From a virus, in IMG/VR virus record IMGVR_UViG_3300037225_000856, positions 48,404-112,403 of that record: a DNA stretch of 64,000 nt. The stretch is one strand, 5' to 3'. How positions within the stretch are numbered: the first letter of the stretch is position 1; each line of letters starts with the position of its first letter. Of the stretch, positions 56,898-64,000 are shown piece by piece. The translations under genes were made by a program, and so were the position numbers. The notes beneath the pieces are model-generated. The model was not told where the DNA came from. It did not search any database and was given only the letters and a program-made list of their open reading frames with translations.

Positions 56898-58181
56898 ATG
56901 CAAAAAGTCGAAAGTCATATAATTAAACATAATAACCCCTTATTTAAAGAAATTGATAAATTATCTTTTTTATCTAAAAATTTATATAATAAATGTTTAT
57001 ATGAATACCTTGAAGCATTAAAAAATAATGTTTATCACAACGAATCTACTTTACATTATTTATTAAAAAATCATGAGGACTATATTAAATTGCCCCGTAA
57101 AGTTAGTTCTTCAATTATTATTCAAACAATTAAAAATTGGAAATCATATTATAAAGCAGTTAAATCTTATAATAATAACCCTGAAAATTTTAAATTGAAA
57201 CCCAAACAACCCTTCTTTAAACATAAAACAAAGGGAAGAAATGTTCTAATTTATACTAATCAAGCATTTTCAAAAAAAATATTTAATAAGACAGGAAAAA
57301 TAAAATTATCACAATCAAATATTGAAATTAAAACCAAAATAACTGATTTTAAGATTATAAATCAAGTAAGAATTGTACCAAAATATGGTTACTATGTTAT
57401 TGAAATAGTATATACAATACTTGATATTCAGCCGTTAATAAATAACGATACTTATTTAAGTATTGATTTAGGTGTTAATAATTTATGTGCGGTTACATCT
57501 AATGTTATTAATCCGTTTTTAATAAATGGCAAACCCTTAAAATCCATTAATCAATATTATAATAAAAAGAAAAGTGGGTTAAAATCTAAATTATCATATA
57601 AAAAAGATTCTAACAATAACTTTATTATGAATAATTTAGGTAAAAAAATACAAAATAAAACTTCAAAAAGAATCGAAAATTTAAGTTTAAAACGTAAGAA
57701 TAAGATAGATAATTATCTATACAAATCAAGCAAGTTAATAATAAATAAAGCAATAGAACATAATATCAACACTATTATTGTAGGTAAAAATAAGCAACAG
57801 AAACAAAAAATAAATATAGGTAAAACTAATAATCAAAATTTCGTAGATATTCCTTTAAGTAGATTTATAAATATGTTAAATTATAAATGCGAAGAGAAAG
57901 GTCTCAATTTAATCCAACAAGAAGAAAGTTATACATCAAAGGCATCATTCTTGTCAATGGATAAAATTCCAATATATAATAAATCAGGTAATGAGAGCAT
58001 AATATTTAGCGGTTACAGAAAATATCGTGGTTTATATCATGATAAGAGGAGTAATTGTAATATCAATGCTGATATTAATGGTAGTTATAATATATTGAGA
58101 AAAGCAATCCCAAATGTATTTGTTGATGGGATAGAGGGTGTTAGAGTTCATCCCAACATAATTAACATTAAAAAATGTTAA
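56898..58181 (+). mobile_element. tnpB: Stand-alone TnpB (IS200/IS605 OrfB family), zinc-finger-less variant
   Basis: The 427-residue coding region has all three RuvC catalytic motifs of TnpB: D in LSIDLGVNNLCAV, E in QQEESYTSKASF, and D in NADINGSYNIL, with IVGKNKQQKQKINIGKTNNQNF between them. The usual zinc finger (C-x2-C...C-x2-C after SYTSK) is absent and is replaced by ASFLSMDKIPIY...FSGYRKYRGLY, a known TnpB subclass. No tnpA is present, so the element cannot transpose on its own by the usual route. TnpB is an RNA-guided nuclease whose guide (omega RNA) usually lies at or beyond the 3' end of the gene; 58182-58288 is the region to inspect. In this phage it may behave like a homing nuclease. 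Confidence 0.85.
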
Positions 58182-58288: not shown

Positions 58289-59743
58289 ATGAGAAAAGAA
58301 CGAATTGAAAAAGCAGTAGAAATTATTAATTATGCAATCCTTGCAGATATATCAGTTAAAGAAGCATCGGTTATATGTGGATATTCTGATACTTATGTAA
58401 AAAACACTAAAGCTCTTGTATACGAACTTTATGACAGGAATCAACTTGGAGACGAACTTTTTGATTTATTTGATGAAGCATATAAACGTTATACTGAAGA
58501 CAGAAATTTTAGTGCAAAAGAAGAAGAATATGTTGTCGAATCGAAAAAACCAGATGGCATTCCAGCATCTACAGGTGGAGAAGACCTTAAATACAGTGAA
58601 AAGGGCAATGAAGCCACTATTGAATGGAAAAGTGGTTCAAACTATCCTGCAGATCATATAAAAACACTTGAAGAATTACTTAAAGCAACTAAAGTAGATA
58701 CCGATCTTTGGAATGTTGCACAATATTGGGAAAATAAATGGGATGTCACCGCAGTTATTCATGATATACCACGCACATTTCAAAATTTTCAAGTTAAAGC
58801 ACGTCTGGAAAAGAAACTCACTGTTGCCAGAGAAAGAGCAATTGGTGAGTTATTTAAAGAAATGATAAAGGATTATAGAGCACCAGTGCTTCAGTTTCTT
58901 CCAAAAATAACAACAGTCAATAAGGAAAAAAATTTTTTGGAAATATCGCTTTTTGATCTACATTTCGGGAAACTTTGTTGGGGGGAAGAGACTGGTGAAG
59001 ATTTTGACATTAAAATAGCACGTCAAAGATTTTTAAATACAATTAAAATATTAATTAAAAGAGCAAGTGGATTTAATTATGAAAGAATATTATTTCCCGT
59101 TGGGAATGATTTTTTTAACAGTGATACAATTTTTAACACAACAACCAAGGGGACTTTGGTAGATGAAGACGTTCGTTGGAAAAAATCGTATTCTTTAGGA
59201 AACAAATTATTGGTTGATTCAATAAATTTATTAAAACAAACAGGTGTGCCCATTGATGTAATTGTAATACCGGGAAATCATGATTTTGAAAAAAGTTATT
59301 ATATGGGGTCATATCTTGAAGCATGGTTCAATAATGACTCACAGGTTAATATTAATAATGGTGCTTCATTAAGAAAATATTACAGATTTGGTAAAGTATT
59401 ACTTGGTTTCACACACGGTAGTGAAGAAAAAGAAAATTCGTTACCATTATTAATGGCAAGTGATGTTGAATCAAAACCAATGTGGAGTGAAACCATTTAT
59501 CATGAATGGCACATTGGACACGAACATAGAAAAAAAGATATGAAATATACCGTTCTTGATAAATCAAAAATGATTGGCGAAGACTTAGGTGTTACGGTAA
59601 GATATCTTTCAAGTTTAACGGGAACCGATGCGTGGCATTTTTCCCACGGATTTGTAGGTGCTATTAAGAGCGGAGATGCGTTTATTTGGAATGATGAAGC
59701 AGGTATGATTGCTCATTTAAACGCAAATTTAATAATAGAATAA
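58289..59743 (+). CDS. Calcineurin-like metallophosphoesterase with N-terminal HTH
   Basis: The 484-residue product has an N-terminal helix-turn-helix-like segment (ILADISVKEASVICGYSDTYVKNT), a charged linker, and a metallophosphoesterase domain (about 220-450) with motifs DLHFGK, GNDFFNSD (usual GD), PGNHDFEK, THGSEE and HIGHEHRK. This arrangement is common in large phages, where the enzyme is annotated as a DNA repair exonuclease or phosphoesterase. It differs from the SbcD part of the gene at 61414, which has its own full set of motifs. Its last bases are duplicated 332 nt downstream, flanking the next gene. Confidence 0.75.
   Translation: MRKERIEKAVEIINYAILADISVKEASVICGYSDTYVKNTKALVYELYDRNQLGDELFDLFDEAYKRYTEDRNFSAKEEEYVVESKKPDGIPASTGGEDLKYSEKGNEATIEWKSGSNYPADHIKTLEELLKATKVDTDLWNVAQYWENKWDVTAVIHDIPRTFQNFQVKARLEKKLTVARERAIGELFKEMIKDYRAPVLQFLPKITTVNKEKNFLEISLFDLHFGKLCWGEETGEDFDIKIARQRFLNTIKILIKRASGFNYERILFPVGNDFFNSDTIFNTTTKGTLVDEDVRWKKSYSLGNKLLVDSINLLKQTGVPIDVIVIPGNHDFEKSYYMGSYLEAWFNNDSQVNINNGASLRKYYRFGKVLLGFTHGSEEKENSLPLLMASDVESKPMWSETIYHEWHIGHEHRKKDMKYTVLDKSKMIGEDLGVTVRYLSSLTGTDAWHFSHGFVGAIKSGDAFIWNDEAGMIAHLNANLIIE
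59723..59743 (+). repeat. 21-bp direct repeat, left copy
   Basis: Starts GCAAATTT, ends GAATAA, and encodes the last residues and stop of the phosphoesterase. An identical copy lies at 60055-60075. Confidence 0.95.
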
Positions 59744-60678: not shown

Positions 60679-60701
60679 ATATATAAATATTTGTATGATT
60701 T

Positions 60702-61337
60702 ATGATAGAAAAGGATATGGAAGACGTGATTTTAATTCAAAACATTTTGAATGGAAATCATCAGGCAGAGGAAATATTTTTTAAGAAATATCAAAAAATA
60801 GTTACAGATTACATACGAACTAATTTTCCCAAACAAAAACCAGAAGACATTGATGATTATACATCAGAGATATTAATTAAAGTTTTTGAGACATTAAAAT
60901 TAATTGACCCTGAAAAGGGCAGTGTGAAAACATGGGTATTGGTTATTGCAAGACATTTTATAACAGATGTATGGAGAAAAAATTTAACTTCATTTACATC
61001 AGCATTTAATAATTCTGGTATAAGCATCAGTAATAATGATGCTCAAAATTTAAGATTTAATGGAGAACCAACTGCTTGGGTGGTTGATAATGAAGTATCA
61101 AATAGTTGTTCGTTTACTGCTTGTAATAATATGGAATTTGAAAATTGTAATACAGTATCTTATTTATCATCACAAATATCTCCAGTTGATTATAGCTTAT
61201 TAAATATGAAATATATACAAGGATATAGTCATTGTGAAATTGGTAAAGAATTTAATCTTACCAGCAGCACTGTTAGTAATCGAATAAATTATATTAAAAC
61301 CAAACTAAAAAAACAAAACGCAGATATATTAGAATAA
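60702..61337 (+). CDS. ECF-like RNA polymerase sigma factor (gp55-like role proposed)
   Basis: The 211-residue product has region 2 (YQKIVTDYIRTNFPKQKPEDIDDYTSEILIKVFETL..., KGSVKTWVLVIARHFITDVWRK) and region 4 with a helix-turn-helix (SPVDYSLLNMKYIQGYSHCEIGKEFNLTSSTVSNRINYIKTKLKK), separated by an unusual linker with cysteines (SCSFTACNNMEFENC). Regions 1 and 3 are absent, as in ECF factors and T4 gp55. Genes 46, 47 and 55 lie close together in T4, and here the sigma gene immediately precedes the fused gp47-gp46 equivalent. It is the best candidate to recognise the (A/T)GTATTTATA motif. The cysteines could sense redox state or bind metal. Confidence 0.8.
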   Translation: MIEKDMEDVILIQNILNGNHQAEEIFFKKYQKIVTDYIRTNFPKQKPEDIDDYTSEILIKVFETLKLIDPEKGSVKTWVLVIARHFITDVWRKNLTSFTSAFNNSGISISNNDAQNLRFNGEPTAWVVDNEVSNSCSFTACNNMEFENCNTVSYLSSQISPVDYSLLNMKYIQGYSHCEIGKEFNLTSSTVSNRINYIKTKLKKQNADILE

Positions 61338-61367: not shown

Positions 61368-61398
61368 TTGCTTTTGAAGGTGTATTTTGATATATTTG
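61368..61398 (+). promoter_or_regulatory. Host-type (Bacteroidota) promoter
   Basis: TTG at 61368-61370, 20-nt spacer, TATATTTG at 61391-61398, 15 nt upstream of the SbcD-SbcC start; near-consensus for TTTG-N19-TAnnTTTG. Confidence 0.55.
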
Positions 61399-61413: not shown

Positions 61414-64000
61414 ATGATTAGAACAATAGCTCAAATTGCTGATATACATATTCGCAAAACGCCTACCCGTAATGAAGAATATCAATTCATATTCGATAAT
61501 TTATTAAAATCATTAAGGCAAACAAAACCTGACAGAATTGTGATTATCGGTGATTTGGTTCATGATTATCTTGATTTACAAGGTGAGCAGTTAATTATGG
61601 CACACGAATTACTTAATGCGTTGAGTGAAATTGCACCAGTACGCATTACCAGAGGTAATCATGACTGCAGAAAGAAAAGTCTTAAGAGAGTCGATTCAGT
61701 AAAGGCAATTGTAAAAACTCTTCATAATCCAAATGTTAAGTATTATGACGAAACAGGATTCGAAGTTGATCAAAATGTTATGTGGGCAGTTTGGCATCAC
61801 GGTGACCCTAAAAATAATCCTTGGAAAACTAAAGTTGGTAAAGAAAATTTAAAGATTAAAGAAGCAGATAATCCTGATGGTACAATAATTGATTTATTTC
61901 ATGACCCTGTTACTGGTTGCAAATCCACCACAGGTTTTGAAATGAAAAGTAAACAATATTATAAACTTTCAGATTTTAAAGGTGACTATTCGTTCTTTGG
62001 TGATATACATAGAATGCAATATCTTGACAAAGCGCATACTAAAGCATATTGTGGGTCTCTTATTGCACAAGATGTAACAGAAGGTGATGATAATTTTCAT
62101 GGTTATTTACTTTGGGATATTGAAAAGAAAACAGTAGATGAAATTCCAATTGAAAGTGAATATTCATTTAAAAATATCCGAATTACACAGTACACAGATT
62201 TTAATGATCTGGATTTTGAAATCCCGAATCCAACAAAATATATGAAGGTCAGATTTGTCTGGGGTACTTTACCACAAACAAGAACTAAAGAAGCTGAAAG
62301 AAAACTGGCTGAATATATTAAAAGTAAATATAATAATGTTATTATTTCGCAGAAAAATGAATTTCTTGAAAATGAAAAAATTGATATAAATGAAAATATT
62401 ACTTTGCAAAATATTACAGATAAGAATGTTCAGCATGAAATATTCAGAGAATACCTTACAAAAATTGGTGCTGATTCACAACTAATTGAAGATATTATTA
62501 TACTTGATGAAGAAATTCTTACGTTAATTGATACCACAGAAGACCAAAGTATTGAATGGAATGTAATTAAGTTTGGTGGTAAGAATTTCATGTCATATGC
62601 TGAATTAGAAATTGATTGGAGAAACATGGATGGTTTATTTCAGATTACTGGAGAAAATACTGCTGGAAAAACAACCATAATGAAACTCATTTCATATATT
62701 CTTTTTGGCAAAACACTGGAAACTGAAAGTCGTAAGTTATATGGTGACTCACGTTTTGTTAATAACAGAAACAATGCCGATTATTGCGAAGGTTATCTTG
62801 TGTTGGAAGCTAATGGCGAATATTATGGCATTAAGAAAAAAACTGAAATTAAAAAATCTAAATCAGGTGATATTATCGGTGCTCCAACTACATTGAATTA
62901 TTATCTGCTTAGTAATCCTGATGAAGAAATGAATGACAATACTTCATTAGAAAAACTTGATGAAGATCGCAGAAAACTCACACAAAAGAAAATAGAAAGC
63001 ATTATAGGCACTTATGATAATTTTATGCGTATTGTTATGACTACATCAGATACATTAAATCGCATATTATCAAATGATATGGCAGTATTTATTGATTCAC
63101 TTTTATTTGATAGTGGATTGGATATTTTTGATAAAAAATTAACTGGATATAAAGTATATGAAAAGAGAGTTAATGAAAAAACAAGAGTATCTTGTGATAT
63201 TGATGGTGTCACTCTTCAAAACCAAGCATTAGGACAGGAAATTGAAACACTTGAAACTGAAATAAAAGAAATTGAAACGATTAAATTACCAGATGTTCAG
63301 GAAAGAATTACTAAAGGCAGAAAGTATGTTGAAGACCTTACCAAGAAATTATTCAAAATAGACCCCGAAATCTACACTCTGGACGTAGATAGTACTAAAG
63401 AGACTATTGGTACTCACAACACTGAGATAACTAAGCTAAACGCACGAAAAGCGGTTATAGAGCAAAGTATCGTTCCATTGAAGGAAACATATGATGCTGA
63501 GAAGTTAAAAACACTTCTTGAAAAGAAAGAAACACATAAAACTACTGAATATAATAAAAAATTAGAAATTAAAACCCATGAACAAACAAAAACAATCGAA
63601 GATCATGCAATTGAAATCATTAACGGTGATATTTTCAGATTAAAAGAAGAGGGTGCTAAATTAAAAAAAGAAATTGTTGCTTTAAAGAATAGTAAAATTT
63701 GTAGTCAGTGCGGACAGGTAATTAATAAGAAAGAACATCAAGATCATATTGCCAATACCGTTAAATTAAAAGAAAATGAAATGTTTCCTCTTGCTGAAAA
63801 GATTAATACAAAAGAACATGTTGATAAAGTGGTACATGAACTTAATATTATTGATGAAGACAAAGCAATAGTTAAAATTAATGAAGAAATTCGTGTTGCT
63901 TCTCTTGAAATGGAGAGTGTTTTAAATGAAATTGGTACACTCACCAATGAAAAAAATGATGTTGAAAAACGTAAAGAACTTCAGACAGAATTAGATCAGA
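61414..64000 (+). CDS. Fused SbcD-SbcC (Mre11-Rad50 / T4 gp47-gp46) protein, 3' end outside window
   Basis: From ATG 61414 the frame stays open to the window end (862 codons visible). Residues 1-330 are an Mre11/SbcD-type nuclease: D10-x-H12, GD at 46-47, GNHD at 81-84, HHGD at 129, GDIH at 196-199. Without a stop or restart the chain continues into a Rad50/SbcC ATPase: WNVIKFGGKNFMSYAELEID, Walker A GENTAGKT at 413-420, a long coiled coil, and the zinc hook CSQC at 763-766. Walker B and the signature motif would lie beyond the edge. In T4 and in cells these are two genes. A host-type promoter precedes it. Role: end resection in recombination-dependent replication. Confidence 0.9.
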   Translation, partial: MIRTIAQIADIHIRKTPTRNEEYQFIFDNLLKSLRQTKPDRIVIIGDLVHDYLDLQGEQLIMAHELLNALSEIAPVRITRGNHDCRKKSLKRVDSVKAIVKTLHNPNVKYYDETGFEVDQNVMWAVWHHGDPKNNPWKTKVGKENLKIKEADNPDGTIIDLFHDPVTGCKSTTGFEMKSKQYYKLSDFKGDYSFFGDIHRMQYLDKAHTKAYCGSLIAQDVTEGDDNFHGYLLWDIEKKTVDEIPIESEYSFKNIRITQYTDFNDLDFEIPNPTKYMKVRFVWGTLPQTRTKEAERKLAEYIKSKYNNVIISQKNEFLENEKIDINENITLQNITDKNVQHEIFREYLTKIGADSQLIEDIIILDEEILTLIDTTEDQSIEWNVIKFGGKNFMSYAELEIDWRNMDGLFQITGENTAGKTTIMKLISYILFGKTLETESRKLYGDSRFVNNRNNADYCEGYLVLEANGEYYGIKKKTEIKKSKSGDIIGAPTTLNYYLLSNPDEEMNDNTSLEKLDEDRRKLTQKKIESIIGTYDNFMRIVMTTSDTLNRILSNDMAVFIDSLLFDSGLDIFDKKLTGYKVYEKRVNEKTRVSCDIDGVTLQNQALGQEIETLETEIKEIETIKLPDVQERITKGRKYVEDLTKKLFKIDPEIYTLDVDSTKETIGTHNTEITKLNARKAVIEQSIVPLKETYDAEKLKTLLEKKETHKTTEYNKKLEIKTHEQTKTIEDHAIEIINGDIFRLKEEGAKLKKEIVALKNSKICSQCGQVINKKEHQDHIANTVKLKENEMFPLAEKINTKEHVDKVVHELNIIDEDKAIVKINEEIRVASLEMESVLNEIGTLTNEKNDVEKRKELQTELDQ

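What the first reader, a model, noticed from the sequence alone, without database searches (positions are those of the whole stretch)
61414..64000. SbcD and SbcC fused in one reading frame
All Mre11-type nuclease motifs, a Rad50 Walker A and a CSQC zinc hook lie in a single uninterrupted frame, unlike the separate genes 47 and 46 of T4 and the sbcD/sbcC pair of bacteria. A fusion fixes stoichiometry at 1:1 and may alter how the complex opens.
Basis: seen in the sequence. Interest (0 to 1): 0.6.

Follow-up and report, generated by a model that had tools for sequence, protein, structure and literature searches.

The report
Fused phage Mre11-Rad50 (SbcD-SbcC) gene
A large phage encodes its DNA-end-processing nuclease and the ATPase that drives it as one long protein instead of two; the fusion is real, but it belongs to a widespread family of fused viral proteins first described in 2011, so it is a new example of something known.

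Summary
Window 61414-63999 is one open frame (862 codons) that is cut only because the contig ends there (the window is bases 48404-112403 of a 112403-base virus record). It carries an Mre11/SbcD nuclease domain, a capping and helix-loop-helix region, a linker of about 10 residues, a Rad50/SbcC ATPase lobe and a CSQC zinc hook. Full-length relatives (94% identical and down to about 20%) supply the rest: signature, Walker B and C-terminal lobe, about 1,110 aa in all. A sequencing error is excluded: in nuclease-only surveys, every decidable locus (77 of 77 viral, 8 of 8 in genome contigs) reads nuclease into Walker A in one frame. The interpretation as something unusual does not hold. Mre11/Rad50 fusions were described in 2011 (Mimivirus R555 and twelve others, including a Bacillus phage), and cultivated phages PTm1, pT24, PAU, MA9V-1 and Mel-JY01 carry them. 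The protein most likely works as an SbcCD/gp46-gp47-type end-processing and recombination nuclease with the two subunits tied in cis. The most surprising thing found lies in relatives: in one sub-lineage the fused gene is broken inside Walker A by a split intein, with 4-6 kb of other genes between the halves.

The parts
61414..63999 (+). fused Mre11/SbcD-Rad50/SbcC ORF, 862 codons, truncated by the contig end (expected about 1,111 codons from L009)
61414..62118 (+). Mre11/SbcD-type calcineurin-like nuclease domain (aa 1-235), catalytic motifs DIH, GDLVH, GNHD, FHDPVTG, GDIH
   Evidence: Pfam Metallophos; motif positions; invariant residues D10, D47, N82, H83, H163, H199 across fused relatives
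62131..62520 (+). capping domain (about aa 240-315) and Rad50-binding helix-loop-helix (aa 337-350 and 355-369)
   Evidence: secondary structure of the AlphaFold2 model of the 94% identical L009 protein; Foldseek matches to Mre11 structures
62521..62550 (+). linker of about 10 residues between HLH and Rad50 N-terminal strand
   Evidence: model; variable in the alignment between conserved helix and EWNxxKFGG
62551..63183 (+). Rad50/SbcC ATPase N-terminal lobe (aa 380-590) with Walker A GENTAGKT at 62650-62673
   Evidence: Pfam AAA_23
63184..63999 (+). coiled coil with zinc hook CSQC at 63700-63711; the returning coil and C-terminal lobe (signature, Walker B) lie beyond the contig end
   Evidence: phrog_77 SbcC match to aa 861
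60702..61337 (+). sigma-70 family factor directly upstream; same place as the late sigma gene of T4-type phages but a different PHROG

Best explanation
It is a fused SbcD-SbcC (Mre11-Rad50) protein of a probable jumbo phage. Two copies are expected to dimerise as in SbcCD: the two ATPase heads (each made of the N- and C-terminal Rad50 lobes) engage on ATP, the coiled coils meet through the Cys-x-x-Cys zinc hook, and each nuclease domain sits on the base of the coiled coil through its helix-loop-helix, to which it is also covalently tied by a linker of about 10 residues. ATP hydrolysis then gives the Mn-dependent nuclease access to blocked or double-strand DNA ends, feeding recombination-dependent replication and possibly host DNA degradation, as T4 gp46/gp47 do. 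Shown: one frame, all catalytic and structural motifs (the C-terminal ones from relatives), purifying selection across the junction, fixed fusion in the family. Inferred: oligomer, biochemical activity, role.
For: Domain matches in one ORF. Motifs conserved across 31 aligned fused relatives, with D10, H12, D47, N82, H83, H163, H199, Walker A N415/G418/K419, Walker B D1053/E1054 and signature S1023/G1024/E1026 invariant (H12 is Gln in the PTm1/MA9V-1/pT24 branch). All 85 decidable loci found with the nuclease domain alone are fused. AlphaFold2 model with mean pLDDT 82 showing nuclease, cap, HLH, short linker, ATPase, coiled coil; best PDB fold matches are Mre11-Rad50 complexes, with E. coli SbcCD among them. 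The family profile matches SbcC 6s6v at 9.8e-31. It sits next to a sigma gene and, in relatives, a primase, as 47/46 sit by sigma gene 55 and replication genes in T4-type phages. The 9-12 residue linker expected from Mre11/Rad50 geometry is given in PMC3175470.
Against: The window's own copy lacks the last quarter of the protein, so its Walker B and signature are inferred from relatives. The H-loop residue is not conserved (His, Gln or Pro) and motif V has Asp for His, so activity could differ from E. coli SbcCD. No biochemical data for any fused phage member turned up in the papers found.
Confidence: 0.88

Rival explanations
1. Two separate genes (47 and 46 type) made to look fused by a sequencing or assembly error in one contig.
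For: The ORF is at a contig end; split genes are the rule in T4-type phages.
Against: 85 of 85 decidable loci are fused, as are isolate genomes PTm1, pT24, PAU, MA9V-1 and Mel-JY01; no ATG in the linker and synonymous bias across the junction.
Confidence: 0.01
2. The fusion is made in one frame but cleaved or used as separate halves, or the nuclease half has lost activity and the protein works mainly as an SMC-like DNA clamp.
For: Motif V is GDIH instead of GHIH; the PTm1-type branch also lacks the motif I His (DIQ).
Against: The remaining metal ligands are invariant and Asp can serve as a metal ligand (general knowledge).
Confidence: 0.08
3. A defence-related SMC nuclease (Lamassu or Wadjet/Jet-like) rather than a replication/recombination enzyme.
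For: Foldseek also lists Lamassu and JetABC chains.
Against: The best matches are Mre11-Rad50, with the Mre11 part matched on its own; the genomic place is with a sigma factor, primase and exonuclease.
Confidence: 0.03

Closest known systems
Mre11/Rad50 (SbcD/SbcC) fusion proteins, Mimivirus R555 type (Yoshida et al. 2011, PMC3175470)
   Same: Nuclease N-terminal, Rad50 C-terminal, one frame, cap and HLH retained, short linker, Asp in place of the motif V His.
   Different: Phage family about 1,050-1,330 aa; R555 is 1,351 aa from an amoeba virus. The paper reports one phage fusion only, with cap/HLH and one P-loop segment missing; here the full set is present (in relatives).
Fused 'metallo-phosphoesterase' / 'DNA repair' genes of Tenacibaculum phages PTm1 and pT24, phage PAU, Chryseobacterium phage MA9V-1, and Microcystis phage Mel-JY01
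   Same: Same architecture in single annotated CDSs; top viral fold matches include PTm1 and pT24.
   Different: About 20-28% identity; longer coiled coils in the PTm1-type branch.
T4 gp47/gp46
   Same: Same domains and likely role; neighbour of a sigma gene.
   Different: Two genes (separated by 46.1 and 46.2 in T4); nuclease domains lie on the other side of a 98/96-supported branch.
E. coli SbcD/SbcC
   Same: Domain set, zinc hook; SbcC is the best profile match in PDB.
   Different: Two overlapping genes, longer coiled coil (SbcC 1,048 aa), GHIH and LSGGE motifs intact.

Membership tests
Mre11/Rad50 fusion proteins (Yoshida 2011) | Mre11/SbcD-like nuclease and Rad50/SbcC-like ATPase in one uninterrupted frame, nuclease first | tested here: met
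Mre11/Rad50 fusion proteins (Yoshida 2011) | cap and HLH kept, with a short (about 9-12 residue) linker before Rad50 | tested here: met
   AlphaFold2 model of L009 (94% identical): HLH ends 369, Rad50 strand starts 380; criterion
SbcD/Mre11 nuclease | metal-ligand motifs I-V | tested here: met
   all present, motif V as GDIH
SbcC/Rad50 ATPase | Walker A and zinc hook CxxC | tested here: met
   window aa 413-420 and 763-766
SbcC/Rad50 ATPase | signature motif and Walker B | tested here: inconclusive
   outside the contig; present in the 94% identical L009 and in 31 aligned relatives
SbcC/Rad50 ATPase | H-loop histidine (usual in the family, not used here as a defining criterion) | tested here: not met
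   variable in the fused family: His, Gln or Pro; Pro in L009, the nearest relative. The window's own H-loop lies beyond the contig end
SbcCD complex | ATP-dependent, Mn-dependent exo/endonuclease on DNA ends; 2:2 assembly | not testable with these tools
   needs biochemistry
T4 gp55-47-46 gene cassette | upstream sigma gene orthologous to late sigma (phrog_234) | tested here: not met
   window sigma matches phrog_1740 and phrog_351, not phrog_234, which the T4, S-RIM2, Yut2 and EP75 sigmas match

The most novel reading that the evidence does not exclude
Fusion is an ancient, fixed trait of one large lineage of phage Mre11-Rad50 proteins, important enough that where mobile elements break the gene (split intein inside Walker A in L110-L112, intein in motif III in L035/L038, endonuclease gene after motif V in L018/L005), one chain or a complementing pair is kept; in the split-intein phages the protein is re-fused by trans-splicing, so that assembly of the P-loop, and thus nuclease activation, depends on splicing.
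Probability: 0.3. Interest if true: 0.5.

Novelty: new member of a known kind. Interest (0 to 1): 0.25.

Why it matters
The fusion shows that Mre11 and Rad50 can be encoded as a cis-tethered unit, a natural single-chain version that could simplify structural and single-molecule work on SbcCD. The survey shows the fused form is common in phages and passes under vague annotations ('metallo-phosphoesterase', 'AAA domain containing protein'), so counts of SbcC and SbcD in phage genomes are likely off. The split-intein break inside Walker A in relatives offers a testable case of a recombination ATPase that exists only after protein trans-splicing.

Tried and rejected
Circular contig continuing the ORF at the record start: no shared end sequence of 15 bases or more and no continuation. 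Rfam introns in L018 and L005: no match at E <= 0.1, so the inserts look like free-standing endonuclease genes rather than group I introns. Plasmid collection: no match. Genome contigs with the window protein: none; with the nuclease alignment: 8, all fused, at least one (L201) a phage-like stretch (RuvC-like, primase-like and structural-type ORFs) between runs of N in a bacterial MAG and cut by N, so not evidence of a cellular gene. Orthology of the upstream sigma to T4 gp55: not supported by PHROGs. A Bacteroidota-type promoter upstream of the fusion (TTG-N20-TANNTTTG at 61368): pattern no commoner than chance in the window and the longer motif occurs only once. Single origin of all fusions: the nuclease tree puts 24 fused and 6 split on two sides of one branch (98/96), but only six split sequences were used, the root is unknown, and the 2011 paper found no single clade across cellular and viral fusions.

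Full report
What is there. The window is bases 48404-112403 of a 112403-base virus record, and its last base is the last base of the contig. The ORF at 61414-63999 (+) has 862 codons with no stop. Pfam places a calcineurin-like phosphoesterase at aa 4-200 and AAA_23 at aa 390-621 of the same protein; PHROGs places SbcC (phrog_77, 1.9e-20) at aa 288-861 and a DNA repair exonuclease at 8-139.

Completing the protein. A scan of IMG/VR with the window protein gave ten relatives at 59-94% identity. Nine carry an uninterrupted ORF of about 1,110 aa (L016 the same length and ends as L009), and the tenth (L018) is interrupted by an insert. L009 (94% identical) provides the missing end, with signature ISASGKER, Walker B FLLDE, and the C-terminal strand region. 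No other AAA_23 protein was found in the 112-kb record, so this is the only SbcC-type gene seen there; a second phosphoesterase (58289-59743, phrog_704) is a separate, differently built exonuclease.

Not an error. The uninterrupted relatives all read through it. Between the window and L009, codons 350-400 differ at 14 synonymous and 4 non-synonymous codons, and there is no ATG in the linker.

How common. A scan with an alignment of thirteen fusions returned 78 loci; apart from the split-intein group (L048-L050, L059) and one frameshifted coil (L097), those long enough carry nuclease, Walker A and Walker B in one ORF. Because a full-length query favours full-length hits, I repeated the scan with the nuclease domain alone. 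Of 80 viral loci, 77 are fused and 3 are cut by a contig end too early to tell; of 8 genome-contig loci, 8 are fused. No split relative appeared among the best-scoring loci kept. Isolate phages with single annotated CDSs are PTm1 (1,318 aa), pT24 (1,310), PAU (1,301), MA9V-1 (1,326) and Mel-JY01 (1,066); a 735-kb metagenomic phage, LR756501, has a 1,202-aa ORF. Several close relatives lie on contigs of 320-365 kb, so the 112-kb record is probably a fragment of a jumbo phage (inference).

Structure. AlphaFold2 on the L009 protein with 31 aligned sequences gave mean pLDDT 82.3 and pTM 0.53. The order is nuclease sandwich (4-235), capping region (240-315), two helices (337-350, 355-369) as in the Mre11 helix-loop-helix, about ten residues of linker, Rad50 lobe I from 380, a long coiled coil, and lobe II from 968. 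Foldseek against PDB gives the Mre11-Rad50-Nbs1 complex first and SbcCD and Mre11 chains among the best, and also generic SMC chains, as expected for a Rad50. Against predicted viral proteins the best matches are whole-length proteins of giant viruses (Harvfovirus, Tupanvirus, Yasminevirus, Catovirus) and phages PTm1 and pT24, that is, the already known fused type. TM-scores are low, probably because long coils bend differently; the E-values and coverage carry the argument.

Mechanism. From the anatomy, the protein should act as an SbcCD/gp46-gp47-type complex with each nuclease tied to its own ATPase. Yoshida et al. [quoted passage not shown] the linker here is about ten. So the fusion can keep the normal contacts. 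The claim that fusion changes how the complex opens is untested. Role in recombination-dependent replication and end processing is inferred from T4.

Prior art. Yoshida, Claverie and Ogata (Virol J 2011, PMC3175470) described Mimivirus R555 and twelve further fusions, including Bacillus phage 0305phi8-36, plasmids, bacteria and eukaryotes, and suggested that many environmental R555 homologs come from phages. R555 also has Asp for the motif V His. The window's gene is therefore a new member of a known kind.

Evolution. A maximum-likelihood tree of the nuclease domain puts the 24 fused sequences and the 6 split ones on the two sides of one branch (98/96). One fusion event in this phage lineage is thus not ruled out, and is the simplest reading, but only six split sequences were used and the root is unknown. 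The 47-46 order and an upstream sigma gene are shared with T4-type phages, which fits fusion in place; however, the window's sigma is not of the late-sigma PHROG, so the neighbourhood is similar, not shown to be homologous.

Mobile elements in the relatives. Three loci from three metagenomes (L110, L111, L112) have the gene broken inside Walker A: the first ORF ends GENQVGK followed by a 29-residue stretch beginning CVHPETKINI and a stop; four to six kb further on, past other genes, some on the opposite strand, a second ORF begins with about 129 residues ending GEYYANNIAVHN followed by SNILNSITYGLYG and the rest of Rad50. The C-terminal piece matches intein-bearing terminase genes of Salmonella and Vibrio phages (E 5e-4 to 2e-3). 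This is the arrangement of a split intein with a short N-part; the joined product would be 1,144 aa with an intact P-loop. Their sister in the tree, L042, is unbroken, so the break is probably secondary. L035 and L038 carry a contiguous intein of about 325 residues with a LAGLIDADG-like match after GNHD of motif III. L018 and L005 have an endonuclease gene between motif V and the GSL motif, with no Rfam intron. I found no paper in the held library that joins split intein with SbcC and phage, and the single hit for intein with Rad50, Walker A and phage is a T4 Rad50 biochemistry paper seen only as a title and abstract start; the library is not all literature.

Verdict. Observation confirmed; known kind; interest 0.25, mainly for the fixed state of the fusion in phages and the split-intein break in relatives.

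Noticed in passing
L110, L111, L112 (reverse complement): first ORF ends at 1642 in L110, second starts about 5645: Fused Mre11-Rad50 gene broken inside Walker A by a split intein with a 29-aa N-part and about 129-aa C-part, with 4-6 kb of other genes between the halves, some on the opposite strand; three metagenomes.
   Followed up: partly
L035 4896-9287 and L038 4989-9299: Contiguous intein of about 325 aa with a LAGLIDADG-like domain inserted after GNHD of Mre11 motif III of the fusion.
   Followed up: partly
L018 6661-7584 and L005 4671-5588: Endonuclease gene inserted just after motif V of the fusion in two distant phages, leaving the gene in two pieces; no Rfam intron found. In L018 the second piece has its own ATG overlapping the endonuclease stop.
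   Followed up: partly
window 60692-60781: Last 30 codons of a DnaG-type primase gene (83% identical to L009) remain before the sigma gene; the rest, present at this place in relatives (L009, L017), is missing here and not found elsewhere in the 112-kb record.
   Followed up: partly
window 56898-58181: TnpB-like protein (OrfB_IS605 and Cas12f1-like TNB domains, 427 aa) next to the exonuclease gene.
   Followed up: no
window 58289-59743: Second calcineurin-like phosphoesterase (phrog_704, DNA repair exonuclease) with an N-terminal extension, found upstream of the fusion in most relatives.
   Followed up: no
L097 4935-8107: Fusion ORF broken by a frame change near the zinc hook (ORFs end 7205 / start 7118); may be a sequencing error.
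   Followed up: no
BFVD A0A068CB47, Listeria phage LMTA-57: A 1,009-aa 'recombination exonuclease' matches most of the model although a Staphylococcus phage of Herelleviridae (IME-SA2, L115) has separate genes; possibly an independent fusion.
   Followed up: no
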